NCBI GenBank assembly: GCA_040755755.1
Contig: JBFLZW010000010.1
Coordinates: forward strand, 99,645-163,644
From: a bacterium
GTDB taxonomy: Bacteria > SZUA-182 > DTGQ01
Length of the DNA stretch: 64,000 nt
Reading direction: 5' to 3'
In this document: piece after piece, positions 5,506-51,267 of the stretch
Position numbering within the stretch: position 1 is the first letter of the stretch
Layout of the letters: every line of letters starts with the position of its first letter
Made by a program: the position numbers and the translations under genes
The notes under the pieces: model-generated
Told to the model about the DNA's origin: nothing
Databases searched by the model: none
Seen by the model: only the letters and a program-made list of their open reading frames with translations

Positions 5506-6755
5506 GAGGATATCCTTTGTGTTACTTGTTTTGACATATCAGTGATCATCAGGGCAAGGGAAATAAGGAATGGCAGGGGATCCTTTCTATCCCAGACCGC
5601 GTAATTGATGTTCCCGCCCAATTTATGAAGTATATCCCCCGGTTTTTTTCTCCGGGTGAACAATTCGCTGGTGAAATGCTTGATAAAGCCATCTTCGGCA
5701 ATCCAGGTAGCTGGCTGATATTTTGAGGAGGAGGATGGAGGCCTGCCTTTGCCAGTGAGGTCAGAGTAGGCGACCAGAGGGAGGTTGATGCCAAAGCTTC
5801 CACTCAGCCGGTGCTGGTCCCAGAACCGGGGATTTATTTCAATCAGGTAATAGATTCCGGTGGCAGGGTCCCTTTTGTACTCAATTTCCGATGTGCCGGT
5901 AAATCCGATAAATTTTAACAGGCGTTTGCTGCATTCAGTGATTTCATTATTAACAGCGCTTTGAACAACAATCCCGGTACCGAACCTCTCCGGTCTCTGG
6001 ATTCTCTTTCGGGTATTGAAAGAAACCAGAACATGAGAATGCCGGTCACAATAGGAACAAAAGGTATAAATATCGTCATCCGCACCCTCGATATATTCCT
6101 GCAGCAATACCGTAGGATTGATGTGCTTGAATCTATTGTATTCCCGCCAAAGAGTTTTCTCGGATGGGCAATAAATCGCTTTCCTTTTTACAATCTTCCA
6201 AATTCTGTCTTTTCTCCAGTCAGCCGCACGAAGAGGTTTTATGATAACCGGGTAGTCAATTTGAGAGCTTATTGAACCTAATTCATCCTCTCTGCCAATT
6301 ACATATGTTTTCGGTGTAGTGACATTGCACCTTTTGGCAGCTTCAAACAATTTCCACTTATCCATGACCGTATTCAGGGTGTTCTTTTCCGGCAGGGCAA
6401 TGATAAAATAGGGTTCGAGTTTTTCCCGGTACCTGTTGAGGAAAAGAATATCATGGTCTCTGGTGGGGAAGATGACCGGCTTTTGGGTTTCTCTTTGAGC
6501 AAGGGCTATCAGAAACTGAGAGAGCCTCTCCGGTTCGGCCTGAGAATCCGGAGAATGGAAAAAATTAACATATCTGCTATAATTACCGCATGCCCATCTT
6601 TTCGATCCTATTCCGAAAACCTTTATCCCTGTTTCGGCAAAAGATCTGGCGATGCCAAGTCCCGTATATGCTAAGTTGAGTATGAATACCGATGGAAATC
6701 CACGTGAATCGAGGTCAACTTCCGTATCAAAATCAATTTTTAATTTTGGATTCAA
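5493..6755 (-). CDS. ATP-grasp family carboxylate-amine ligase-like protein
   Basis: 420 residues. The N-terminus has a Rossmann-like stretch (LNLAYTGLGIARSFAETG), followed by an ATP-grasp fold with 'YPVIIKPLRAADWRKD', 'LLQEYIEGADDDIYTF' and the metal-binding segment 'YLIEINPRFWDQH'. Such enzymes join a carboxylate to an amine through an acyl phosphate. The start is a TTG at 6755 with GAGG about 10 bases upstream; no nearer ATG fits without losing the conserved N-terminus. It overlaps the upstream GNAT gene by 23 bp and the downstream amidotransferase by 13 bp. In this context it may attach an amino acid or similar group to a sugar acid of the polysaccharide, which is inference. Confidence 0.78.
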   Translation of the reverse strand: MNPKLKIDFDTEVDLDSRGFPSVFILNLAYTGLGIARSFAETGIKVFGIGSKRWACGNYSRYVNFFHSPDSQAEPERLSQFLIALAQRETQKPVIFPTRDHDILFLNRYREKLEPYFIIALPEKNTLNTVMDKWKLFEAAKRCNVTTPKTYVIGREDELGSISSQIDYPVIIKPLRAADWRKDRIWKIVKRKAIYCPSEKTLWREYNRFKHINPTVLLQEYIEGADDDIYTFCSYCDRHSHVLVSFNTRKRIQRPERFGTGIVVQSAVNNEITECSKRLLKFIGFTGTSEIEYKRDPATGIYYLIEINPRFWDQHRLSGSFGINLPLVAYSDLTGKGRPPSSSSKYQPATWIAEDGFIKHFTSELFTRRKKPGDILHKLGGNINYAVWDRKDPLPFLISLALMITDMSKQVTQRISSWVE

Positions 6756-7944
6756 TCTCGTGCTTTCCTCTTCTTATGAGGTTGTAACAACCGGTTAACA
6801 ATCTGTACATATTCTCTTGCGTGGAGCGTCTGGATATCCGTATTTCCAGTAAATCCCGTGAATAGTTCTCCCACATTTCCTTATAACCGGCACCCTGGCC
6901 TCCTATCTTGAGAAAATCATACTCCTTATAGCCTTCATGAATCGCCTCCTCTATGCAGTAGCTGTGCAGCAGCAATCCAAGCCGTACATGGGTATTTTCG
7001 TGAGGAATAAGCCCAGCCTGGAAAAAATGAATTTTGTTGTCAAAGGCAAAATTATAATTAGCGGCCACGGGTCTGTTCTCTAAATGTAAAAAGCACAGCT
7101 TTAACCAGCCGTTATTGAATGCCAGAGGTATCAGTTTCTTATGGAATGCCTTCCATTTCCGGCTGAAAAAAGCTCCGGGCTGTCCCTTGCCCTGCCATCT
7201 GTGCTGATGCAAGGCTTCCAGATCATCGAATGCTTTCGAAAGCTCATGTTCATGCTGAACCACATGATAGGTTCCTGACAGTTTATTGAATTCTTTTCTC
7301 CCTCTGGTGATCTTGTAGCGGAGACTTCCCTGAATGGATTGAAGATATTCATCCCAGGTATCAGGGAGTTTAATCAAGATGCTCGGAGTGCGTTTGGTGA
7401 TTTGAAAATTTAACCCATTCTTTCGGGCAGCCTCATGGAGCAGGGTTGAAGCAGGAGACTCGGCGGAAACGTTTTCTAAAATTATTTCATCCCAGGCAGG
7501 GAGACCGGAAAGGCATTTCACCAGGCCATCGATAAAGTCTTTTTCTCTGCCTTCCCGAATGATCAAATCAAGATAATCGGAAACAACGTTTCTCTCACTG
7601 GTTCTGCCGGAACCGAGGAAACCTGCGGTTTTGTACGGTAATAACTTGAAATACCGGATATTTTCACGGTGTATCGAAAGAGGAGCTATCCCGATGATTT
7701 CCTCACCTTCAGATCCGAGAATAATAAACAGATATCTTTCATCACCATAGATTTCCCACCAGGTATACAGCCATTCCCAGGTCTGGGTTATGGCCCTGTT
7801 TGAGCTTCTCTGAACAAGTCTGTTCCAGACAGTGTGAAGGCTTTCAAATTCCTCGGAATTATCAATAATCCTGAAACTTAATCCGCGAGGCGAGGATAGT
7901 TCCGTATCCAGTATTCTGGATTTTATCAGAGCTGAGTTACTCAA
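6733..7944 (-). CDS. CelD/BcsL-family GNAT acetyltransferase
   Basis: 403 residues resembling the double-GNAT (Acetyltransf_6) proteins common in polysaccharide loci: an N-terminal 'ITQTWEWLYTWWEIYGDER' segment typical of the family and a C-terminal 'YNFAFDNKIHFFQAG...EYDFLKIGGQGAGYKEMW' acyl-CoA-binding half. Predicted cytoplasmic, transferring an acyl or aminoacyl group to a sugar or lipid-linked intermediate. The start is TTG at 7944, whose last two bases are shared with the TGA stop of the upstream rhodanese gene (TTGA). This arrangement points to translational coupling and supports both the start and the reading of the rhodanese through to 7941. Confidence 0.8.
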   Translation of the reverse strand: MSNSALIKSRILDTELSSPRGLSFRIIDNSEEFESLHTVWNRLVQRSSNRAITQTWEWLYTWWEIYGDERYLFIILGSEGEEIIGIAPLSIHRENIRYFKLLPYKTAGFLGSGRTSERNVVSDYLDLIIREGREKDFIDGLVKCLSGLPAWDEIILENVSAESPASTLLHEAARKNGLNFQITKRTPSILIKLPDTWDEYLQSIQGSLRYKITRGRKEFNKLSGTYHVVQHEHELSKAFDDLEALHQHRWQGKGQPGAFFSRKWKAFHKKLIPLAFNNGWLKLCFLHLENRPVAANYNFAFDNKIHFFQAGLIPHENTHVRLGLLLHSYCIEEAIHEGYKEYDFLKIGGQGAGYKEMWENYSRDLLEIRISRRSTQENMYRLLTGCYNLIRRGKHEIESKIKN

Positions 7945-8411
7945 TGTTTTCCAATGAGAATTTTTCCATTTCTTACGAGGACAAAACCTGCTTTCGGCAT
8001 CTCATCAAGCCCGCCTAAGATACACAGTGCATTTGTATATCCCTGCTCACGTAATAAGATCGCTGCACGAGCGCTCTGTGCCTCACCCGCTCACCTGCAG
8101 AAGAGTAAAATTGTCTGGTCTTTTGGATATGGGAGGTTAATTTTCTCCAGCGTCGATAAAGGAATGTTAACAGATCCAAGAATACGTCTGCTCTTGTAGT
8201 AATTTGCTCCATCAACTGAAATCAGGATGGCTTTGCCGGATTTATAGATTTCAAATGCCTCTTGAATGCCAATTCTTTTTGCACTTTGAGTTTCTTCTCG
8301 ATACTCGTTAACTATATCTTCATGTGAGGCATTCTCGGATGTCGCCCAAACCGGGTATGGAGGGCACAAGAGCAGGATACCAAGGGCAAGGACCGGAATA
8401 ATTTTCAGCAT
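7941..8411 (-). CDS. Periplasmic rhodanese-like protein, probable selenoprotein (in-frame TGA at 8091-8093)
   Basis: ATG at 8411 follows GAGG at ideal spacing. An N-terminal signal peptide (cleavage near ...PVWA) is followed by a rhodanese domain (SVDGANYYKSRRILGSVNIPL...). After 'ILLFCR' comes an in-frame TGA; the same frame then continues 'AGEAQSARAAILLREQGYTN', 'LGGLDEMPKAGFVLVRNG' and stops at 7941. The text on both sides of the TGA is one intact rhodanese domain. The TGA sits in C-R-U-A-G-E-A-Q-S-A-R, where many relatives have C-x-C-P-x-E-x-x-S-A-R (recalled, not searched), so it aligns with a conserved Cys. A candidate bacterial SECIS hairpin follows. The natural stop overlaps the next gene's start as TTGA. 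The alternative is a nonsense mutation. Substrate not known; the role in the exopolysaccharide operon is unclear. Confidence 0.68.
8057..8077 (-). promoter_or_regulatory. Candidate bacterial SECIS element
   Basis: Immediately downstream of the TGA at 8091-8093, the transcript can form a hairpin: AGA pairs with UCU, a G·A mismatch, then CGCU pairs with AGCG, closing a five-base loop CGUGC. The loop GU falls 23-24 nt after the UGA, within the usual distance for SelB-binding elements. The lower stem is short. A competing fold (GCAC with GUGC) exists, so the element is plausible rather than established. Confidence 0.45.
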
Positions 8412-15124: not shown

Positions 15125-16273
15125 TTATACCAGATACTTCGACAGGGATGGTCCGATAGTCTGGGTAACCCAGGGGGGCAGCTTTTTCCAGAGCTTTATC
15201 TTTCTCTGGTACTTGGGATTTGCAGGGCTGAGATTGGGCATTTCCGTGAGCCTGTTCAGGAAGTACTGGTAATACAATGGCTTTGGCTCAAAACCCCAAT
15301 GTCTTTTAAAATGGAATGATCCGGTATTTTCCTTGCTTCTTCCGAAATCGAAAAAGCGATAGCCGTTTTCACAGCCATATTTCATTAATTGCCAGTACAT
15401 AAAGTCATTGGGTGCCAGATCCCGGTATTCAACCAGGGAGCCCGCATAATACGGGAGAACCTGGTCTTTATAGAAGAACGTGAGAACTCCGGCAATCGGC
15501 AGCTTGTCCTGGTTCTGGATGATGAGCAGAAGGCAGTTTTCCTTGAATTCATCGCAGATGTTCTCGAAAAACCTGAAGGTAAAAAGTGGTGTTCCCAGAT
15601 TATGGAAGCTCCTCGCCAATACACTGTAAAATGACTTCAGGTTATGGTTTCCAAACTCGAAAGAAAGGTTAAATTTTTCACCCTGCCGGATCATGCGCCG
15701 GGCTTTTCTTGGAATGGCCTCCATGTTTTGGTCAAGGTCCGGGAATATCTCCCGTTTGAAGTTATAATAGAGGCTCTTGAGTGCAAGCCCATTGAGCAGT
15801 TTATCTTTATACCGGAGCTCAAGATAGTCGAGTCCCTGGCTTTTGGTAATTTCCACAGCCCGTTGCAGTAATAAATTTTCTATCTCGGTGTTATTGGCAA
15901 GTGCACCCCCGACTTCTGCAAAAGGGCTGGAGATTATAAACTTTCCAAAAAGAAAGCTTTTGATGAAGAAGAGAGGAAGTACGCCTGCAAGGGTGGTTTG
16001 AGATGATCTCTGATCATCAGGGGTAATGGCTTCCGGCGGGTCGAAGGTCTGCTCGGCGAGCAGGTAACAGGGACTGTGCCCGAAGGTCTTTTCGACAATA
16101 TTTTTCCAGCCGATGAGGTGAAAAAAACTCCCATCCGGATGTGCTTTGACGTAATTATCCCACGCTGGTTGATCATTTGGCCGTAACTGCCTGATTGTTA
16201 TGGTCGCTTTTCTGGAATCGGTTTTCTGAAGGTCGATCATCTGCTGACTTGAGTGAGGTGTAAGAGTGGCCAT
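15125..16273 (-). CDS. FemAB family, XrtA/PEP-CTERM system-associated
   Basis: 382 residues with the FemAB/GNAT fold: 'SFFHLIGWKNIVEKTFGHSPCYLLAEQ' region near residues 50-75 and the C-terminal 'GYRFFDFGRSKENTGSFHFK' segment typical of the family associated with exosortase A loci. Predicted to transfer an aminoacyl group or similar. ATG 16273 has GGAG about 12 bases upstream and overlaps the end of the exosortase fusion gene by 101 bp; the neighbour's overlapping tail is low in recognisable domain content. ATG 16240 is an alternative with no visible ribosome-binding site. Confidence 0.85.
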   Translation of the reverse strand: MATLTPHSSQQMIDLQKTDSRKATITIRQLRPNDQPAWDNYVKAHPDGSFFHLIGWKNIVEKTFGHSPCYLLAEQTFDPPEAITPDDQRSSQTTLAGVLPLFFIKSFLFGKFIISSPFAEVGGALANNTEIENLLLQRAVEITKSQGLDYLELRYKDKLLNGLALKSLYYNFKREIFPDLDQNMEAIPRKARRMIRQGEKFNLSFEFGNHNLKSFYSVLARSFHNLGTPLFTFRFFENICDEFKENCLLLIIQNQDKLPIAGVLTFFYKDQVLPYYAGSLVEYRDLAPNDFMYWQLMKYGCENGYRFFDFGRSKENTGSFHFKRHWGFEPKPLYYQYFLNRLTEMPNLSPANPKYQRKIKLWKKLPPWVTQTIGPSLSKYLV

Positions 16274-18074
16274 TGGTGTTCACTTTCTCCTGTAATCCGT
16301 GCTCCTTACCGTCGATATCCATAAGATACTGGAAGCAGGTCGTGAAGTGGCATTGTTCGAAATTCTGTACGAACTGGAACAAGTTAGAGAGAGTTTTATT
16401 CAGGTTTGTGTAGTGTCTGAATTTCCCGTAGAGTGAGGCTTCTTTTACCACAGGCTGCTCCGGGTCAATTTCCCACGGATGCAAATAGAAGAGATAAGCA
16501 TGGTCATTTTTGAGTATGTATCGAACACCCATTATAAATGCTGGAAAGGGTATCAGGCGGAAATATCCACCTCCTCCCCAGGGAAGAACGCAATCCGAGA
16601 AGGTAATATTACTGATAGGAAGCTCGTATAAATTTTCCGAAACCTTGTGAGCGATACCTTTTTTCCAATTTCCGGCTAAAGCCAACCGCCCGTATCGAGC
16701 ATTGACGCCGAATGAATTAAAACTTGAATCGTAAAGGTACCCGCACTCTTCAACCATTTTCAGAATTTCATCACTGATAGAGAAGCTCGGAGCGCGGTAG
16801 CCAAGAACAGGAAAGCCAATGATATCTTCCAGGAGCATTTTACTCCTGGCAAGATCATCTTCCATATTTTGGCTTGATTGCCGGGAACAGAGCATATGGT
16901 TATATCCATGAGATGCGACTTCATGTCCGCGGGAATGGATCTCCCGGACAAGGCCGGGGATTCGCTCGGCGAGCCACCCAAGTACAAAGAATGTGGCTTT
17001 TACTTTGGCCTCGTCAAAAAAATCCAATAAGCGATAGGTATTTTTCTCTACTCGCAGATCTTTATTCGGCCAGTCAGCAAAGGGGATAACCGGCTTAAAG
17101 TTTTCCACCTGGAACCAGTCTTCAACATCAATGGTCAATAAGAGAGAAGGTCTTTCAGGGGGTGAATTGGAGAAACCGATTTCATCTTTTCTCTCCGGGC
17201 AGTGGTTATATATGAGCGGTTCCTGATGGACTACTGTTTTCCCACCTGTTCCGAGCCGGCCAAGAACATTATGGAAGCCAAGGAGCAGGAGTAATCCGAG
17301 AAGGAAGACCACCATTCCTGAAAACTCATGGAGGAAACCCTGGGCAACTGCGGCACCAAAGCGGCTGGCAAACCCGGCTGTCATACTGAGCCGAAACACA
17401 TTAGCCATGATGGCAATGGGTATGGCTGAGAGAAACAATAGCCATTTCTTTATCCAGGAATGACTGGAAAAATACGCGAATGCCGAGCTCAGGGCCAGGA
17501 GTGAGACCAGTGAGCGAAGGCCGGAGCAGGCATCCACGACCTCCAGGGTCGTATTGGCCAGGTACAGAACATTTCCCTCCCGCACAATGGAAATCCCGAT
17601 GGTTTTGATGAGGTTTTCAGCCATAGCCGAGGAGAATATCTGCAGGGGAAAGGCAATCGCATTCCAGATGATGGCCGGGATCGGGACCATGAACAGGAGA
17701 TAACCCAGGGGAAAAGCGATCTTGCGGGTAATTCCTTTTCCCAGGAGAAAGAACGAAAGGCCAAAGAGAGATATGATGACAGCCAGTCTCATGGTAAACA
17801 GCTCGGCACCGAGGTTGCTCACAATATGCACTGCCATCCCAAGAACGAGGAGCACTATTCCCCAGTTGCCTGATTCCACAGAATACGAAGACAGCTCTTT
17901 TCTCTTATGCCATATCATCGAGACCGCAAGAAGAGGAATGAAAAAACCATGTGAATAGTTAGGGTCTTCCATCCAATCCCTGCCGAGCTCAATAAGAGTA
18001 GTGCTAAAGAGCATAAAGAATGAAGACAGTAAAATAGTCATATAAAGGTAAGTTGAGGAGAGGAGTTTTTTCAT
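16173..18074 (-). CDS. xrtA: Exosortase A fused to polysaccharide deacetylase
   Basis: 633 residues in one frame. Residues 1-275 form a polytopic exosortase with the catalytic triad visible: Cys183 in DACSGLRSL, Arg228 in ANVFRLSM and His249 in GFLHEFSGM. A linker of about 35 residues follows, then a NodB-type deacetylase of the PEP-CTERM class (about 308-590): 'LLLTIDVEDWFQVENF' metal Asp pair, 'HEVASHGYNHML' HxxxH and 'GYRAPSFSI'. In the loci I recall these are two adjacent genes; here they are joined without stop or frameshift. The exosortase half would process PEP-CTERM proteins at the inner membrane. Whether the deacetylase half faces cytoplasm or periplasm depends on the final membrane segment. 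No PEP-CTERM substrate gene was recognised in the window. Confidence 0.9.
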   Translation of the reverse strand: MKKLLSSTYLYMTILLSSFFMLFSTTLIELGRDWMEDPNYSHGFFIPLLAVSMIWHKRKELSSYSVESGNWGIVLLVLGMAVHIVSNLGAELFTMRLAVIISLFGLSFFLLGKGITRKIAFPLGYLLFMVPIPAIIWNAIAFPLQIFSSAMAENLIKTIGISIVREGNVLYLANTTLEVVDACSGLRSLVSLLALSSAFAYFSSHSWIKKWLLFLSAIPIAIMANVFRLSMTAGFASRFGAAVAQGFLHEFSGMVVFLLGLLLLLGFHNVLGRLGTGGKTVVHQEPLIYNHCPERKDEIGFSNSPPERPSLLLTIDVEDWFQVENFKPVIPFADWPNKDLRVEKNTYRLLDFFDEAKVKATFFVLGWLAERIPGLVREIHSRGHEVASHGYNHMLCSRQSSQNMEDDLARSKMLLEDIIGFPVLGYRAPSFSISDEILKMVEECGYLYDSSFNSFGVNARYGRLALAGNWKKGIAHKVSENLYELPISNITFSDCVLPWGGGGYFRLIPFPAFIMGVRYILKNDHAYLFYLHPWEIDPEQPVVKEASLYGKFRHYTNLNKTLSNLFQFVQNFEQCHFTTCFQYLMDIDGKEHGLQEKVNTNGHSYTSLKSADDRPSENRFQKSDHNNQAVTAK

Positions 18075-43260: not shown

Positions 43261-45486
43261 ATGATAAAAGCTGACGAACCGATCGCCCATGTGACGGAGG
43301 ATGGCCGTAGGCAATCTCTCTATGATCATTTGACTGGCACTGCCGCACGAGCGGCAAAGATGGCAGGAGAGTTCGACTGTGCAGAATGGGGAAGACTGGC
43401 CGGGCTTTGGCATGACCTTGGCAAGTATTCCAAAGACTTTCAGCAGATGATCCGTACCGCAGATGGCATGGATGCACATCTTGAAACTAAGCAGGGGCAG
43501 GGACGAGTGGATCATTCTACGGCTGGTGGCATCTATTCAATTGAACAATTCGGCAAGGTTGGCCGCATTCTCGCCTATCTCATTACTGGCCACCATGCCG
43601 GACTACCTGACTGGCAGACTGAGAGCTCAGGAATGGCCGCTTTAGCCCAGCGTATTAAAAAAGCTGAACTGCTGAAAGTGATGATTGCCTCAAACCCTCC
43701 ACCTGAAATCCTGAAGCAGGGGGTCCCAAAAGAAAAGCCAAAATCCGGTTCAGATCCCGCTCTCTGGATACGGATGCTTTTTTCCTGCCTTGTAGATGCT
43801 GATTTCCTCGATACAGAATCCTTTCTTGAGCCACAAAAGGCGCAGTCCAGGGAAGGATACCCAGGGCTTTCCGAGTTGCTGCCGATGTTCACGGCATACA
43901 TGGAGAGCAAGCAAAGGGATGCGGATGATACTCCGATCAACAGGCTTCGGGCGCAAATACTTCAACGGTGCAGAGAAATGGCCTCGCACCTGCCAGCGAT
44001 TTTCACCTTGACAGTTCCTACCGGCGGAGGAAAGACCCTCTCATCCCTGGCATTTGCCTTGAATCATGCTGTATTGTATCAAAAGCGGCGGATTATTTAT
44101 GTCATTCCCTACACGAGCATCATTGAACAGACTGCCGACCAGTTCAGGAAAATATTTCCTGACGCCGTTGTAGAGCACCACAGTAACCTCGATGCATCCG
44201 AAGCCCGGCGGGAAACCAGCAGAAGCCGTTTAGCCTGTGAAAATTGGGATGCACCTGTCATTGTCACCACTTCCGTGCAGTTTTTTGAATCTCTTTTTGC
44301 CAGCCGCACAAGCCGCTGCCGCAAGCTCCATAATATCGTGAATTCCGTCGTGGTGCTCGATGAAGCACAGCTTTTGCCGCCTGAATTTTTAAATCCGATC
44401 CTGGCAGTCTTAAAAGAATTGCAGCAGCATTACGGTGTCACTCTGGTTTTGAGCACCGCCACTCAGCCTGTATTAGGACCGCATAAAGCTTTTGATTTCG
44501 ACTTTTCCGGGCTGCCTGAGATGATCGAGATCATGGATGATCCGCTATCACTCCATAATTCCTTCAAGCGCGTAAAGGTGCAGGTCCCAAAGGATTTGCA
44601 TACCCCGCAGACCTGGGAGCAGCTTGCTTCGGAGCTTATAGAACATCCATCGGTTTTGTGCATTGTTAATCGCCGTGACGATTGCCGTGAGCTTTACCAG
44701 ATACTTTGCCAGCATAAGTCTGAAGGGACTATCCATCTCTCCGCTCTCATGTGCGGCGCCCATCGCTCGCAGGTAATATCCCGGATAAAGCAGCGGCTCA
44801 AAGATACTATACCCACTCGCGTAATCAGCACCCAACTGGTGGAAGCCGGGGTGGATGTCGATTTCCCGGTTGTATACCGTGCTCTGGCTGGTCTTGATTC
44901 CATTGCCCAGGCTGCCGGACGGTGCAACAGGGAAGGCCATCGTGAAGAAGGCCATGTTGTAATCTTTATTCCTCCCAGCAAAATTCCAGCAGGACACCTT
45001 CGGCAGGCTGCCGAGATCGGGCGACAGCTTCTGGCCGAAGAGGTGGATGATCTGCTCGGACCGGAACGCTTCACCAGATTTTTCAAGGAGCTGTATTGGC
45101 TCAAAGGAAGCGGATTGGATGCCGAAGGCATTCTCCATGATTTAGGTAAAGATCCGGAATTCAGATTCAGCTTTCGCACCGCAGCCGCAAAATTCCACCT
45201 GATTGATGAATCATGCCAGGCACCGGTGATGGTTAGATACGGTGAAGGGGCTGAGTTGATTGAAAAACTGACCAAAACCGGACCGGAGCGGTGGCTGCTG
45301 CGAAGGCTTCAGCGGTATGTCATTAACCTGCCGCGCTCACTGCATGGAAAACTGCTGGCTTGTGGTAGTATCAGAGAAATCAGCCCCGGGATTTACATCC
45401 AGGGGCATGAGGCACTTTACCAGGAAGACCTGGGTTTCTGCCCCGATAAGTCAATAATATATGAACCCGATGAACTGCTTGGTTAG
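43261..45486 (+). CDS. cas3: CRISPR-associated helicase/nuclease Cas3 (type I-C)
   Basis: 741 residues. HD nuclease domain with LAGLWHDLGKYSKDF and GRVDHSTAGG (residues about 45-90), then an SF2 helicase: Walker A 'TVPTGGGKTLSSLAFALNH', motif II VVVLDEAQLLPPEFL, 'LVLSTATQPVLG' and a C-terminal 'STQLVEAGVDVDFPVVYR' with 'AAGRCNREG'. All motifs intact, so it should be active as the nuclease-helicase recruited to the target-bound complex. It is the first gene of the cas operon; cas5 starts 25 bp downstream. Confidence 0.95.
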   Translation: MIKADEPIAHVTEDGRRQSLYDHLTGTAARAAKMAGEFDCAEWGRLAGLWHDLGKYSKDFQQMIRTADGMDAHLETKQGQGRVDHSTAGGIYSIEQFGKVGRILAYLITGHHAGLPDWQTESSGMAALAQRIKKAELLKVMIASNPPPEILKQGVPKEKPKSGSDPALWIRMLFSCLVDADFLDTESFLEPQKAQSREGYPGLSELLPMFTAYMESKQRDADDTPINRLRAQILQRCREMASHLPAIFTLTVPTGGGKTLSSLAFALNHAVLYQKRRIIYVIPYTSIIEQTADQFRKIFPDAVVEHHSNLDASEARRETSRSRLACENWDAPVIVTTSVQFFESLFASRTSRCRKLHNIVNSVVVLDEAQLLPPEFLNPILAVLKELQQHYGVTLVLSTATQPVLGPHKAFDFDFSGLPEMIEIMDDPLSLHNSFKRVKVQVPKDLHTPQTWEQLASELIEHPSVLCIVNRRDDCRELYQILCQHKSEGTIHLSALMCGAHRSQVISRIKQRLKDTIPTRVISTQLVEAGVDVDFPVVYRALAGLDSIAQAAGRCNREGHREEGHVVIFIPPSKIPAGHLRQAAEIGRQLLAEEVDDLLGPERFTRFFKELYWLKGSGLDAEGILHDLGKDPEFRFSFRTAAAKFHLIDESCQAPVMVRYGEGAELIEKLTKTGPERWLLRRLQRYVINLPRSLHGKLLACGSIREISPGIYIQGHEALYQEDLGFCPDKSIIYEPDELLG

Positions 45487-45511
45487 GGCAAACCTTATGA
45501 AAGGAGGAACC

Positions 45512-46192
45512 ATGCCGAAAATGCCGGAAAAAAGCCGTATCCTGCGGCTTAAGGTCTGGGGCGAAAACGCCTGCTTTACCCGGCCGGAGATGAAAGTCGA
45601 GCGAGTTTCCTACGATGTCATGACACCTTCTGCGGCGCGTGGCATACTGGAAGCCATCCTCTGGAAACCGGCTATTCTCTGGCGAGTCACGCAAATCGAT
45701 GTGCTGAAACCCATCCGCTGGGAATCGGTCAGGCGCAATGAGGTTGGTACAGTCATGTCAACCGACTGCGCAACACCCAAAAAAGGCAGTGGCCAGACTG
45801 GTATGTACATAGAAGATCATCGGCAGCAGCGCGCCGGTCTTTTTCTCCGGGATGTGGCCTATACCATTCACGCATATTTCGAGCTGACGGATAAGGCCGG
45901 ACCGGAAGATACCATTATCAAATTTCAGGAGATGTTTTATCGCCGGACTGAGAAAGGGCAGTGTTTTAACCAGCCTTATCTTGGCTGCCGGGAGTTCAGC
46001 GCTCACTTTGAACCGATTGCCCACGATCAGCCACTCCCTGCGCCGATTTCCACGGGGCGGCATGAGCTTGGCTGGATGCTTCATGACCTGGATTATGGCG
46101 GAGAAGCGCCTATGCCGCGCTTTTTCCGGGCATGCCTGGAAAATGGCCGTCTGGTAATACCGCCATTCGATGATAAGGAGGTGCGGTCATGA
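45512..46192 (+). CDS. cas5c: Cas5 (Cas5d/Cas5c), pre-crRNA processing subunit of type I-C
   Basis: 226 residues starting MPKMPEKSRILRLKVWGENA, with 'FTRPEMKVERVSYDVMTPSAARGILEAI' typical of the I-C Cas5. In this subtype Cas5 rather than Cas6 cuts the repeat; no cas6 is present. ATG 45512 has AAAGGAGG upstream; an upstream in-frame ATG at 45461 would overlap cas3 and lacks such a site. The stop overlaps cas8c by 4 bp (ATGA). Confidence 0.93.
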   Translation: MPKMPEKSRILRLKVWGENACFTRPEMKVERVSYDVMTPSAARGILEAILWKPAILWRVTQIDVLKPIRWESVRRNEVGTVMSTDCATPKKGSGQTGMYIEDHRQQRAGLFLRDVAYTIHAYFELTDKAGPEDTIIKFQEMFYRRTEKGQCFNQPYLGCREFSAHFEPIAHDQPLPAPISTGRHELGWMLHDLDYGGEAPMPRFFRACLENGRLVIPPFDDKEVRS

Positions 46193-47967
46193 TCCTTCAG
46201 GCACTAGCTCAATACTACCAGCGCCTTAAAGATAACTCTCAGGTAGCGCTGGAAGGTTTTCAGAAACAGGAGATTCCTTTCCTGATTATCCTTGATCGCA
46301 AGGGTAATTTTATTGGTCTGCAGGATACACGCCAGGGAGAGGGAAAAAGGAAAACAGGCCGTATTTGCACTGTTCCAAAAGCAGTTAAAAAAACGAGCGG
46401 CATTGCCTCCAATCTTCTCTGGGAGAATCCAGCTTATGTGTTGGGGCGACCCAAGGTAGACAAGAAGAAAGATTTCCCAAAATTGCTGGAACGCGCCAAA
46501 GAGCAGCACGCTTGTTTTATAAGCAATATTCATGAAACCTTTCCTGATCCGGCAGCAGACGAAGGGATTTCCTCAGTAGTCCGGTTTTTGGAACGCGGCG
46601 ATTTCGCTCAGGTATTCGCTCACCCATTGTGGCCGGAAATTGAGGAGAGTGGTGCAAACATTACCTTCCAACTTGAGGGTGACATGGACCTGATATGCCA
46701 GCGTGATGTGGTGATTAAAGCTATTACCAGCGGAGACGCAAATGAAGAAAGAGAGCAGCAACCTTGCCTGATTACCGGTGAACTTGACCAGCCGGTTCGC
46801 CTGCACACTGCCATTAAAGGGGTATGGGGTGCCCAGCCTACCGGCGCCAATATTGTTTCCTTTAACCTTCCGGCTTTTAATTCATTTAGTAAAACCCAAG
46901 GGGAAAACGCACCGATTGGGAAAAAGGCTGAATTTGCCTATACCACAGCTCTCAATACCCTGCTTGCCAAAGGTTCACGGCAGCGTATTCAGGTTGGTGA
47001 TGCCAGCACAGTATTCTGGACAGCAAGGGAAAATTCTATCGAAAGATGGTTCGCCGATCTTTTCGGTGAACCTGCCAAAGAAGTGTCGGACCAGGATAAC
47101 GCAGCTATCCGCAACCTGTACGCTGGACCGACAGGCGGTGCTCCTCCACTGGATGAAGACCTGACGCCATTCTTTGTTCTTGGTCTTGCACCTAATGCTG
47201 CACGGCTTGCGATTCGTTTCTGGTATGCTGGCACAGTCGGCGAAGTGGCCAGAAATATCCGGCAGCACTTCGATGATATCGCTATTCTGCATAGCCCCAA
47301 AGAACCAGACCACCTGTCATTATTCCGCCTGCTGGTATCTACGGCCATGCAGGGAGATTCCAAAAACATCCAACCCAATCTGGCTGGTGAAGTGATGAAA
47401 TCCATCCTGGCCGGAACACCATATCCGAAGACCTTACTCAATGCCGCAATTATGCGGATCAAGGCGGAACAATCCAGGAAGGATAAAAACGGAAACTCAT
47501 TACCCAACGTCTCCTACCCGCGGGCAGCGCTCATCAAAGCGGTGCTGGTGCGGGAGGCGAGATTCTACAGAAAGAGCGAAAAGGAGGTAGGTATGTCGCT
47601 TGATCAAAATAATGCCAACCCTGGTTATCGGCTGGGACGTCTTTTTGCAGTTCTTGAGCGGGCACAGGAATGCGCCAGTCCGGGTATCAATGCAACGATT
47701 CGTGACCGTTTCTATGCTGCGGCCTCCAGCACACCGGTTGTTGTCTTTCCCCACCTGCTCAAATTGAAAAACCATCACATTGCCAAACTCGACAATAAGG
47801 GCCAGGCTGTCAATCTGGAAAAGCAGATCAGTGAAATCATGGCCGGGCTCAGTGATTTTCCATCCCGCCTGGACCTTTGCGATCAGGGACGTTTTGCCAT
47901 TGGTTATTATCATCAGCGGCAGGACACTTCTTTATCAGGAAAGAGGAGCGGTAATCCAAAAGAATAA
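46189..47967 (+). CDS. cas8c: Cas8c (Csd1), large subunit of type I-C Cascade
   Basis: 592 residues from the ATG that overlaps the cas5 stop. The family pattern is clear: 'MILQALAQYYQRL', 'ASNLLWENPAYVLG', 'CLITGELDQPVRLHTAIKGV', 'SFNLPAFNSFSKTQGENAPI', 'TVFWTARENS', 'FFVLGLAPNAARLAIRFWY' and 'SLDQNNANPGYRLGRLFAVL'. It recognises the PAM and recruits Cas3. The coding frame is complete. 28 bases of tail and a dispersed repeat separate it from cas7. Confidence 0.95.
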   Translation: MILQALAQYYQRLKDNSQVALEGFQKQEIPFLIILDRKGNFIGLQDTRQGEGKRKTGRICTVPKAVKKTSGIASNLLWENPAYVLGRPKVDKKKDFPKLLERAKEQHACFISNIHETFPDPAADEGISSVVRFLERGDFAQVFAHPLWPEIEESGANITFQLEGDMDLICQRDVVIKAITSGDANEEREQQPCLITGELDQPVRLHTAIKGVWGAQPTGANIVSFNLPAFNSFSKTQGENAPIGKKAEFAYTTALNTLLAKGSRQRIQVGDASTVFWTARENSIERWFADLFGEPAKEVSDQDNAAIRNLYAGPTGGAPPLDEDLTPFFVLGLAPNAARLAIRFWYAGTVGEVARNIRQHFDDIAILHSPKEPDHLSLFRLLVSTAMQGDSKNIQPNLAGEVMKSILAGTPYPKTLLNAAIMRIKAEQSRKDKNGNSLPNVSYPRAALIKAVLVREARFYRKSEKEVGMSLDQNNANPGYRLGRLFAVLERAQECASPGINATIRDRFYAAASSTPVVVFPHLLKLKNHHIAKLDNKGQAVNLEKQISEIMAGLSDFPSRLDLCDQGRFAIGYYHQRQDTSLSGKRSGNPKE

Positions 47968-47987
47968 TTATCCATTTGATTATAAAG

Positions 47988-48080
47988 CAAATGTAGATTT
48001 GGGGGCTTTTCGCCCCACCAAATACCGCACGCGATCTCATCGCCGATCCTAACTGGCTGCGGATTTAGCGCGCAATGTAC
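47988..48080. repeat. Dispersed repeat between cas8c and cas7
   Basis: About 93 bp matching 40091-40190 (shared blocks CAAATGTAG, CCCCACC, AATACCGCACGCGATCTC and GCGGATTTA), with a partial copy near 24832. It contains a GGGGGC...GCCCC hairpin that could reduce transcription into cas7. No coding content. Confidence 0.75.
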
Positions 48081-48095
48081 AAAGGAGGAATTTCA

Positions 48096-49199
48096 ATGAA
48101 TACCACGATTAAAAACCGTTACGATTTTGTGCTTTTGTTTGATGTGAAAGATGGCAACCCCAATGGTGACCCTGATGCGGGCAATCTTCCCCGTGTCGAT
48201 CCGGAAACAGGACACGGCCTGGTTACCGATGTCTGCATCAAGCGTAAAGTCCGTAACTACGTGGGGCTGTCAAAGGAGCTGGCAGTTCCCTATGACATTT
48301 ATGTTAAGGAAAAATCTGTTCTTGGCAGGGCTCATGTCCAGGCGTTCAATGCCCTGGGCATTAAACTCGGCGAAGAGGTAAAACTGCCGGTTCCGAAAGA
48401 AATCGTGGAAGACCTGAAAGAAATTGATCTTCCGGAAGGATTGACTTTACTCCTTCCTGATCCTGATGATGAAGCCGAAACAGCCTTTTTAGTCTTGGCC
48501 TCTGATATGGACAAAAAGGAAGCTCAAGCAAAACTGAAAGAGGTAACTCTATCCAAAAAGGCGAAGGACTTCCTTACCAACGCCCTGAAAGCTGCCAAGT
48601 CACGCAAACCCACTGGTGAAGAAGTGGAAAAGGGCAGAGGCAAGATGTGCGAAACTTTTTTTGATGTGCGTACATTCGGTGCTGTAATGTCTCTGAAATC
48701 GGCGCCTAACTGTGGGCAGGTACGAGGGCCGGTACAATTGACTTTTGCCCGCAGCGTGGATCAGGTGGTTCCCCTGGAGCACAGCATAACCCGCATGGCG
48801 GTTGCCACCGAAGCGGAGTCGGAGAAACAGCAGGGAGATAACCGCACCATGGGAAGGAAATATACGGTCCCCTATGCCCTGTACCGCTGTCACGGCTTTA
48901 TCTCGGCATCCTTAGCAGGCCAGACAGGTTTCAGCGAGGATGACCTTTCTCTCTTCTGGGAAGCCCTTATCAATATGTTCGAGCATGACCGCTCAGCGGC
49001 ACGGGGCCAGATGGCGACCCGAAAACTCATTGTCTTTAAACATGATTCAGTAATGGGCAACGCACCTGTTCATAAACTTTTCGATATGGTGAAAGTTGAA
49101 GCCAAAAATGTTCCCGTAAGGGATTTCAACGATTACACTATTATTGTTCCCGGCCAGGATGTCATGCCACCAGGCGTTACCGTTCTCGAAATGCAGTGA
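48096..49199 (+). CDS. cas7c: Cas7 (Csd2), backbone subunit of type I-C Cascade
   Basis: 367 residues from ATG 48096, with GGAGG upstream. Family text: '[20 protein letters not shown]', '[12 protein letters not shown]', '[12 protein letters not shown]', '[26 protein letters not shown]' and '[16 protein letters not shown]'. It coats the crRNA as the filament of the interference complex. A short in-frame upstream ATG at 48075 has no comparable ribosome-binding site. Confidence 0.95.
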
Positions 49200-49291
49200 C
49201 CCGTTTGGCTACAGATATCTGGGAAAACTCCCAATTATTACTCTACTCAAGGTGGATTCTATCATTCATCCCCACCTAACACCCTCCCTCA

Positions 49292-49402
49292 AGGGGCAAT
49301 TGCATTACTTGGGGCAGCGTTTTTCCCCCTCACCCCTCTGGGGAGAGGGCGGGGTGAGGGGCATTGGTCGCGGATAATCCTTAATGTTAATGCCATTGCC
49401 CT
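49292..49402. mobile_element. MITE-like element, copy 2, between cas7 and cas4
   Basis: Right end GTTAATGCCATTGCCCT is identical to that of the copy at 42806; the left end (AGGGGCAATTGCATTAC) has decayed. The interior again carries the REP palindrome and CATTGGTCGCGGATAATCC. It occupies most of the 308-bp gap 49200-49507, which has no gene. Confidence 0.65.
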
Positions 49403-49507
49403 CAAAAAGGGGGGCGAGGGAATGGATAGGTTTACTATCCTTAAGATGGGTAAGTTATTTTGCAGGAGTTCCCTGGAGACATTGTGGAAAGATGAAAGGA
49501 GGTCACT

Positions 49508-50140
49508 ATGACTTCACAAGAACTAACCGACCCCATCATGGTCTCCGCCCTGGAGCATTACAGCTACTGTCCCCGTCAGTGTGCCCTCATCCATATAGAG
49601 CATATATGGGACGAGAACATTTACACCATGCGTGGCCGGGATGTGCACGAGAATGTGGATATCGACTCCTCGCACCTGTTGGCTGGCGTCCGCTATGAGC
49701 GGGCGCTGCCGATATGGTCGCGCCGACTGAATATGGTGGGGAAAGCCGATCTGGTGGAGTTTCACGGTGATATTCCCTATCCGGTCGAATATAAATCCGG
49801 CCACCGCCGCACTGGCCACCACGAGGCGATGCAGCTCTGCGCCCAGGCAGTCTGCCTGGAAGAGATGCTCAGCGTAAGGGTGGAGAAAGGAGCGCTCTAT
49901 TGGCATGGCTCACGCGCGCGGAAAGAGGTAATATTTACCGCGTCCCTGCGAGAGCAGCTTGAAAAGGTGGTTTCTGCCGTTCATGAGATGATTGCTAACC
50001 GGCTTATTCCCCCTCCGGTGAATGATAAGCGGTGTAAGGATTGTTCATTGAGAGAATCCTGCCTGCCAGATGTGATCGGTGATAAAACCAGGAACCGGCG
50101 GGCGGCCAGAGAGCTGTTTACTCTGGAACGTCCGGAATAG
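49508..50140 (+). CDS. cas4: Cas4 RecB-like nuclease, adaptation module
   Basis: 210 residues. An N-terminal Cys in HYSYCPRQCALIHIE and a C-terminal cluster CKDCSLRESCLP supply the four Fe-S ligands; the RecB-type motif is PVEYKSGHR with a preceding Asp (GKADLVEFHG). Cas4 trims prespacers and helps select the PAM end. ATG follows AAAGGAGG. Cas1 begins 86 bp downstream. Confidence 0.94.
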   Translation: MTSQELTDPIMVSALEHYSYCPRQCALIHIEHIWDENIYTMRGRDVHENVDIDSSHLLAGVRYERALPIWSRRLNMVGKADLVEFHGDIPYPVEYKSGHRRTGHHEAMQLCAQAVCLEEMLSVRVEKGALYWHGSRARKEVIFTASLREQLEKVVSAVHEMIANRLIPPPVNDKRCKDCSLRESCLPDVIGDKTRNRRAARELFTLERPE

Positions 50141-50226
50141 CGCAATCACAGACTTGTTGTTTGCAGTACCCTTCAATCTGCCGGTATGTCTGAGGATTGA
50201 AAGCAAGCGAAGCGGGAGGAATACAC

Positions 50227-51267
50227 GTGAAACAGTTTCTGAACACGCTGTATGTTATGACCCAGGGAGCTTATGTCTGCCTGGATCATGAGACAGTGAA
50301 GATTGAAGTAGAGGGAAAGGTGCAACTCCAGGTTCCCCTCCATCACCTGGGGGCCATTGTCACTATGGGAAATGTCATGATGAGCCCCTTTATCATGGCC
50401 CGATGCGCGGACGATGGCCGGGCGGTGGTGATCCTTGACCGGAATGGGCAGTTCAAATGCCGCATGGTCGGAAAAACCAGCGGTAATGTCCTGCTCCGCC
50501 AGGCCCAGTATGAGGCGGTCAGGGAACAGGAGCGGACTTTGGCCATTGCCAGAAATATCGTTGCCGGTAAGGTAAAAAATGCCAGACAGATACTTTTGCG
50601 CGGGATACGGGAGAGCGATAATGAAGAAAAGGAGGAGATCGATGCTTTAAAGAAAGCCAGCGATACCATTTCCAATGTCCTGTTCCATCTGAAGGACGCA
50701 AAGGATATTGACGAGGTGAGAGGATTTGAGGGAGAAGCGGCCGAAGCTTATTTTCAGTCCTTCGACCGGATGGTCAAGAAGAGCGAGCGGAAGTTCTTCA
50801 CCATGAATGGCCGAAGCAGAAGGCCGCCGCTTGATCCGGTGAACAGCCTCCTGTCGTTCCTTTATACCCTGCTGCTGAATGATTGCGTTTCAGCACTGGA
50901 AGGAGTCGGGCTCGATTCACAGATGGGTTTTCTCCATGCCCTGAGGCCAGGAAGACCATCATTAGGATTGGACCTGATGGAAGAATTCCGTTCTATATTG
51001 GCGGACCGTCTGGCGCTGACACTGATTAACCGGAAACAGGTAACTGCCAAACATTTCGAGTCCAGACCCGGCGGAGCTATATATCTTAATGATGAGGGAC
51101 GCAAAGCCGTGGTAGTGGCCTACCAGAAACGGAAACAGGACGAATTCCACCACCCGATTCTGGATTCAAAAGCCCCCTTCGGCCTTATCCCTCACATTCA
51201 GGCAAGATTGCTGGCCAGACACCTGCGCGGAGATCTGGAGGCATATACACCTGTTTTGTATTCGTAG
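50227..51267 (+). CDS. cas1: Cas1 integrase (type I-C)
   Basis: 346 residues from a GTG at 50227 with GGGAGG seven bases upstream (protein VKQFLNTLYVMTQGAYV). An in-frame TTG 30 bases earlier is an alternative. Metal-site residues are in FEGEAAEAYFQ (Glu), GFLHALRPGRPSLGLDL (His and Asp). With Cas2 it inserts new spacers at the leader end. Confidence 0.95.
   Translation: MKQFLNTLYVMTQGAYVCLDHETVKIEVEGKVQLQVPLHHLGAIVTMGNVMMSPFIMARCADDGRAVVILDRNGQFKCRMVGKTSGNVLLRQAQYEAVREQERTLAIARNIVAGKVKNARQILLRGIRESDNEEKEEIDALKKASDTISNVLFHLKDAKDIDEVRGFEGEAAEAYFQSFDRMVKKSERKFFTMNGRSRRPPLDPVNSLLSFLYTLLLNDCVSALEGVGLDSQMGFLHALRPGRPSLGLDLMEEFRSILADRLALTLINRKQVTAKHFESRPGGAIYLNDEGRKAVVVAYQKRKQDEFHHPILDSKAPFGLIPHIQARLLARHLRGDLEAYTPVLYS

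What the first reader, a model, noticed from the sequence alone, without database searches (positions are those of the whole stretch)
7941..8411. Rhodanese with in-frame TGA, likely selenocysteine, in an exopolysaccharide operon
Seen: one rhodanese domain continues in the same frame across a TGA at 8091-8093; the restored protein ends with a TTGA overlap to the next gene; a hairpin with a GU-containing loop begins 13 nt after the TGA. Known: selenocysteine often replaces a conserved Cys, and rhodanese-type selenoproteins exist. From memory, related proteins have C-x-C-P-x-E where this has C-R-U-A-G-E. Inference: this is a real selenoprotein, giving CxU redox or sulfur/selenium-transfer chemistry in the periplasm. 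It is not a standard part of exosortase loci that I know of.
Basis: partly seen in the sequence, partly recalled or inferred. Interest (0 to 1): 0.78.

Follow-up and report, generated by a model that had tools for sequence, protein, structure and literature searches.

The report
Exported selenocysteine rhodanese, CxU type
This bacterium carries a gene for a rhodanese-type (sulfur-handling) protein whose internal stop codon is very likely read as the selenium amino acid selenocysteine; it sits among genes predicted to build an outer polysaccharide coat, and it is a divergent relative of a selenoprotein group already on record.

Summary
On the minus strand (8411-7941) one rhodanese domain runs in frame through a TGA (8093-8091) and ends in a TTGA overlap with the next gene. 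The genome has selA, selD (itself with an in-frame TGA), two selB and two tRNA-Sec(UCA) genes. Relatives agree: 120 of 120 listed database proteins (the window's own included) end at the residue before this codon, and 80 of 80 loci kept from a genome scan (120 found) have TGA there. In those loci a hairpin follows the TGA in fixed register with clear covariation. The window's hairpin sits in that register with GU in the loop, but it is diverged: a covariance model of the family does not recover it. The predicted fold is rhodanese; Cys105 holds the usual catalytic place, Sec107 lies two residues on. CxU rhodaneses are in print; this one scores 46.7 bits against an NCBIfam cut-off of 115, looks exported, and belongs to a small C-R-U subgroup. 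I judge it a new variant of a known kind. Its tie to exopolysaccharide is adjacency only, not conserved in the three other family genomes searched. The chemistry (Cys persulfide resolved by Sec) is inferred.

The parts
7941..8411 (-). rhodanese gene, 156 codons plus stop, read through TGA codon 107
8340..8411 (-). hydrophobic N-terminus, residues 1-24, likely export signal
   Evidence: by eye; also hydrophobic in P0004-P0008; low-confidence part of the model; no signal-peptide program was available
8097..8099 (-). Cys105 codon, at the usual catalytic place of rhodaneses
   Evidence: aligned to the active-site Cys of solved rhodaneses; end of strand 100-104 in the model
8091..8093 (-). TGA codon 107, very likely selenocysteine
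8057..8077 (-). predicted SECIS-like hairpin; stem core 8073-8070 with 8064-8061, loop CGUGC 8069-8065
   Evidence: against: z +0.86; family model does not list it
7941..7944 (-). TTGA overlap of the rhodanese stop and the TTG start of the next gene
6733..7944 (-). next gene, GNAT (FemAB-like) protein, 403 aa
   Evidence: PF13480
8444..9391 (-). preceding gene, polysaccharide deacetylase
   Evidence: PF01522
5493..6755 (-). ATP-grasp protein
   Evidence: PF02786, PF02655
3565..5505 (-). asparagine-synthase-like protein
   Evidence: PF00733
2105..3643 (-). polysaccharide flippase-type protein
   Evidence: PF13440
9397..10704 (-). glycosyltransferase
   Evidence: PF00534
10697..11803 (-). acyltransferase
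   Evidence: PF01757
16173..18074 (-). exosortase fused to a polysaccharide deacetylase/DUF3473 part
   Evidence: PF09721, PF01522, PF11959
18099..18755 (-). DUF3485 (EpsI-type; that name is recalled) protein
   Evidence: PF11984

Best explanation
The gene at 8411-7941 encodes a single-domain rhodanese that is predicted to be exported and whose in-frame UGA codon 107 is very likely read as selenocysteine. Shown: the frame, the homology on both sides of the codon, the conserved TGA and hairpin of the wider family, and a genome with the genes to make and insert Sec. Inferred: Sec is inserted at codon 107 with the help of the hairpin at 8077-8057 and one of the two SelB factors. After export, Cys105, at the place of the rhodanese catalytic Cys, would take a sulfane sulfur as a persulfide. 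Sec107 would attack it, releasing sulfide (or passing the sulfur on) and leaving a Cys-Sec bond that an outside reductant must open. The protein would thus be a sulfane-sulfur or thiol redox enzyme of the cell envelope. I put Sec insertion at about 0.95 and this chemistry at about 0.5.
For: Sec genes: selA, two selB, two tRNA-Sec UCA, selD with an in-frame TGA, two FdhA over the family cut-off with TGA. Coding after the TGA: E 5.2e-07 in this frame only. Truncation at the same residue in 120 of 120 listed proteins, own included. TGA in 80 of 80 loci kept. Hairpin covariation in 81 sequences, window included: 98.2% of cells paired, 0 of 500 shuffles reach it. Rhodanese fold, pLDDT 92-98 over the domain. 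TTGA junction at the read-through end.
Against: The family covariance model R1 does not list the window hairpin among 22 matches up to E 10. The hairpin is no more stable than shuffles, and pair 20-34 is G-A. The stop codon of the six close relatives was not seen as DNA. Export is judged by eye. No redox or sulfur partner gene was found among the nine neighbours scanned. Nothing here tests the chemistry.
Confidence: 0.62

Rival explanations
1. Same Sec protein, different chemistry: a sulfur (or selenium) transferase in which Sec107 or Cys105 carries the chalcogen to an acceptor, or a thiol peroxidase, not a persulfide reductase.
For: The fold and sequence matches include transferases (GlpE, PspE, YgaP). 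Of 80 relatives, 4 have U-x-U, which shows that the first position can be Sec too.
Against: No acceptor or sulfur-pathway gene is seen next to it among the nine neighbours scanned. No direct test either way.
Confidence: 0.33
2. The TGA is a true stop: the gene is a decayed or shortened rhodanese, or a base error made a Cys codon into TGA.
For: The family model misses the hairpin; its stability is ordinary.
Against: TGA in 80 of 80 loci kept, truncation at the same residue in 120 of 120 listed proteins, conserved in-frame second half, in-register hairpin, Sec genes present.
Confidence: 0.04
3. UGA is read as another amino acid (Trp, Gly or Cys) by a changed genetic code.
For: None beyond the open frame.
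Against: TGA ends 10 of 30 main frames counted, a tRNA-Trp with anticodon CCA is present, and a full Sec gene set is present.
Confidence: 0.01

Closest known systems
NCBIfam NF041203 rhodanese_LYCAU ('form 3', CxU, in PMC13188914; 'COG0607 form 2', CxU, in PMC9312934, taken to be the same from the shared example TKB26178.1)
   Same: Small rhodanese with C-x-U in the active loop; best NCBIfam match of the window protein, E 2.2e-12.
   Different: 46.7 bits against a cut-off of 115; N-terminal export-like stretch; C-R-U-A-G-E in place of C-A-U.
the wider IFYC-x-U-P group retrieved here (80 loci, L065-L144)
   Same: TGA at the same column in 80 of 80 and a hairpin in the same register.
   Different: 23-34% identical to the window protein for those aligned; has VCAYDD where the window has ISVD; most start without a signal-like stretch; five scanned singly (L070, L094, L098, L116 of these 80, and L051) also miss the NF041203 cut-off, at 60.4-65.2 bits.
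classical single-domain rhodaneses (GlpE, PspE, YgaP, BH2092)
   Same: Fold and the Cys at the start of the active loop.
   Different: Longer active loop with Sec two residues after the Cys.

Membership tests
bacterial selenoprotein (UGA-encoded Sec) | Sec synthesis and insertion genes in the same genome | tested here: met
   selA, selB x2, selD, tRNA-Sec x2
bacterial selenoprotein (UGA-encoded Sec) | in-frame TGA with homologous coding sequence on both sides | tested here: met
bacterial selenoprotein (UGA-encoded Sec) | TGA or Cys at the same column in relatives | tested here: met
   TGA in 80 of 80 loci kept; for the six close relatives only the protein end is known
bacterial selenoprotein (UGA-encoded Sec) | SECIS hairpin just after the TGA | tested here: inconclusive
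   met in the family; in the window in register with G26 U27 but missed by the family model and not stable beyond chance
bacterial selenoprotein (UGA-encoded Sec) | selenium in the protein | not testable with these tools
   needs mass spectrometry or 75Se labelling
NF041203 rhodanese_LYCAU | score over the curated cut-off (115 bits) | tested here: not met
   46.7 bits
NF041203 rhodanese_LYCAU | C-x-U in the active loop | tested here: met
   C105-R-U107, with U inferred
rhodanese domain PF00581 | score over the gathering cut-off | tested here: met
   34 bits against 22.2
rhodanese domain PF00581 | rhodanese fold with Cys at the start of the active loop | tested here: met
   model and matches; Sec modelled as Cys
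standard component of exosortase/exopolysaccharide loci | same neighbours in other genomes | tested here: not met
   flanking deacetylase has no close relative in the three other family genomes (best 33% identity; none in G002); 7 of 82 wider-family loci, all Geomonas, have a GNAT gene nearby; context of the six close relatives could not be read

The most novel reading that the evidence does not exclude
A selenium-gated polysaccharide operon: ribosomes that stop at UGA-107 never reach the TTGA junction, so the downstream FemAB-like GNAT protein would be made in proportion to Sec insertion. The exported Sec rhodanese would then be both the selenium sensor, through its own codon, and an envelope redox enzyme, its diverged hairpin perhaps read by the second SelB/tRNA-Sec pair that this genus carries.
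Probability: 0.12. Interest if true: 0.78.

Novelty: new variant of a known kind. Interest (0 to 1): 0.47.

Why it matters
It adds a likely exported, divergent branch to the CxU rhodanese selenoproteins, and shows that in the wider group Sec is the rule at this place (80 of 80 loci kept), not an occasional swap for Cys. It gives that group a covarying hairpin locked to the codon frame, and a gene arrangement in which selenium supply can be tested as a control on a surface-polysaccharide gene. All 120 listed database entries are cut off at the Sec codon, so the group is easily missed or misnamed.

Tried and rejected
Close relatives with DNA: the first genome-contig scan and one viral-contig scan with alignment A1 gave no relative. 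A search of 386 genomes with A1 (E 1e-10) gave, besides the window's own, two ordinary ArsR-rhodanese proteins with C-R-G-R-N-C.

Cys forms: a search with the part from residue 57 of P0123 had one candidate and no hit. That is weak evidence, since the search needs shared exact words.

The TGA flagged inside the L023 match is that gene's own end, not the Sec column; L027 was not resolved; neither was counted. The covariance model R1 was built as an independent test of the window's hairpin and did not find it. Neighbours: ten wider-family loci were listed and 20 proteins from nine of them scanned; no shared partner except a pyruvate:ferredoxin oxidoreductase upstream in Ca. Jettenia and Ca. Loosdrechtia, and the GNAT gene in Geomonas. 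Papers: none in the library holds selenoprotein, rhodanese and LYCAU together; two hold selenocysteine and exosortase, one occurrence of each, seen as listing only; searches on two tRNA-Sec or two SelB gave listings. Of papers opened, only search passages were read: PMC13188914, PMC9312934, PMC1794560, PMC1088965, PMC2398784, PMC8318568, PMC5330540.

Full report
What is there. The gene lies on the minus strand: ATG at 8411, in-frame TGA at 8093-8091 (codon 107), end at 7943-7941. Its end overlaps the TTG start of the next gene as TTGA. It encodes 156 residues with a hydrophobic N-terminus that looks like an export signal (by eye; no program for it was available). Pfam finds one rhodanese domain across the TGA. 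An HMM built only from the stretch after the Sec codon in 80 relatives has one significant hit in the window, this frame just after the TGA, E 5.2e-07 against 0.19 for the next. So the second half is coding sequence of the same domain.

Can the organism read UGA as Sec? By gene content, yes. The genome that holds the window (5.26 Mb, 88 contigs) has selA, two selB over the cut-off, two tRNA-Sec with anticodon UCA and selD with its own in-frame TGA. Two formate dehydrogenase genes over the family cut-off carry a TGA in HCAR[LT]-U followed by hairpins with GGUCU. TGA still ends 10 of 30 main frames counted in the window.

Is the TGA conserved? The first protein search gave five proteins, the window's own and four others, all ending at C-R. 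A profile search gave 3231 proteins; of the 120 listed (own included), 120 end at C-x before this column, 7 of them at C-R. The profile held truncated rows, which favours truncated hits, though not their exact end; the other 3111 were not listed. A genome scan with a second alignment matched 193 stretches, 120 of them relatives, of which the best 80 were kept. All 80 have TGA at the column: 76 C-x-U and four U-x-U (L116, L119, L126, L143). The 40 not kept were not seen. Cys at this column was seen in one more distant locus, L025.

The hairpin. In the 80 loci plus L051 and L052 the register is fixed without gaps. Counting U of UGA as 1, pairs 20-34 to 24-30 enclose loop 25-29; G26 is in 82 of 82 and U27 in 74 of 82. 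Pair 21-33 joins two third codon positions and changes in step: UA 46, CG 30, GC 2, AU 1, UG 1, unpaired 2 of 82. With the window added to the 80 loci (81 sequences, 78 distinct), 98.2% of cells pair, against 18.5-55.6% when partners are slid. None of 500 shuffles reaches the paired fraction, the covariation score, the cells changed on both sides or the pair types; 32 of 500 reach the number of pairs with a change on both sides (2). The shuffles do not account for relatedness. The window keeps pairs 21-33 to 24-30, the last as U-A where 80 of 82 others have C-G, and keeps G26 U27; by synonymous recoding this combination has frequency 0.0028. Against: pair 20-34 is G-A, the fold is no more stable than shuffles, and model R1 built from the 80 loci does not list it among 22 matches up to E 10. 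The same model finds L051 and L052, not used to build it, at E 5e-15 and 4.9e-14, and the FdhA hairpin of this genome at C13 at E 0.00032. The window's element is thus a diverged one, and its use in decoding is likely, not shown.

Structure and chemistry. The AlphaFold model (Sec modelled as Cys) has mean pLDDT 89.4 and 92-98 over most of the domain. The best Foldseek matches in the PDB are rhodaneses. Cys105 follows strand 100-104 and residue 107 lies in the loop before helix 111-122; the profile alignments to solved rhodaneses pair this Cys with theirs. So Cys105 holds the classical catalytic place and the Sec is an addition. This suggests, untested, a persulfide on Cys105 resolved by Sec107.

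Surroundings. The gene lies between a polysaccharide deacetylase and a FemAB-like GNAT gene in a same-strand cluster with a flippase-type protein, asparagine-synthase-like, ATP-grasp, glycosyltransferase and acyltransferase proteins, an exosortase fused to a deacetylase/DUF3473 part, and a DUF3485 protein. The flanking deacetylase has no close relative in the other three genomes of the family (best 33%; none in G002). For the rhodanese itself G001 has no match and G002 and G003 only weak ones, E 6.0e-4 and 4.2e-6. In 7 of 82 wider-family loci, all Geomonas, a gene similar to the window's second GNAT-like gene (15125-16273; not scanned itself, but the Geomonas copy L069 matches PF13480) lies upstream. 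The polysaccharide link is therefore adjacency, with a weak echo in one genus.

What is known. Reviews list CxU rhodaneses; I saw table passages of PMC13188914 (form 3, NF041203, CxU) and passages of PMC9312934 (COG0607 form 2, CxU). The window protein matches NF041203 best, but at 46.7 bits against a cut-off of 115, so it resembles that family and is not a member by its test. Five members of the wider group scanned singly score 60.4-65.2 bits and also miss it. I file the finding as a new variant of a known kind.

Verdict. The Sec is near certain from comparison; export, the part played by the window's own hairpin, the chemistry and any function in polysaccharide making are inference.

Noticed in passing
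G000 C31:87832-89757 and C2:79241-81202 (L159, L155); tRNA-Sec at C7:658-751 and C2:81261-81350: Two diverged selB genes (38% identical) and two different tRNA-Sec genes in one genome. The same-genus genome G001 has both selB types, its second one 75% identical to C2's, with a tRNA-Sec gene close by, so contamination is unlikely. Genomes with two tRNA-Sec are in print (passages of PMC5330540).
   Followed up: partly
L116, L119, L126, L143 (TGA pairs at the C-x-U place): Four relatives have TGA at both places, U-x-U, in genomes titled Deltaproteobacteria, Nitrospirota, Nitrospiria and Nitrospiraceae. The review table lists one Sec for this form.
   Followed up: partly
L011 2198-2269: Fluoride riboswitch about 600 nt from the second tRNA-Sec gene.
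   Followed up: no
16173-18074: Exosortase fused to a polysaccharide deacetylase/DUF3473 part in one frame.
   Followed up: no
43261-63735: Looks by eye like CRISPR-Cas genes (43261-51267, plus strand) followed by a long repeat array: many frames from about 51.8 kb on repeat the same short peptide. Type not tested.
   Followed up: no
L179 (G001 C134) and L178 (G003 C87): Molybdopterin-type genes with HQAR[LI]-U whose hairpin after the TGA reads GGCUCU in place of GGUCU; a possible second hairpin type.
   Followed up: no
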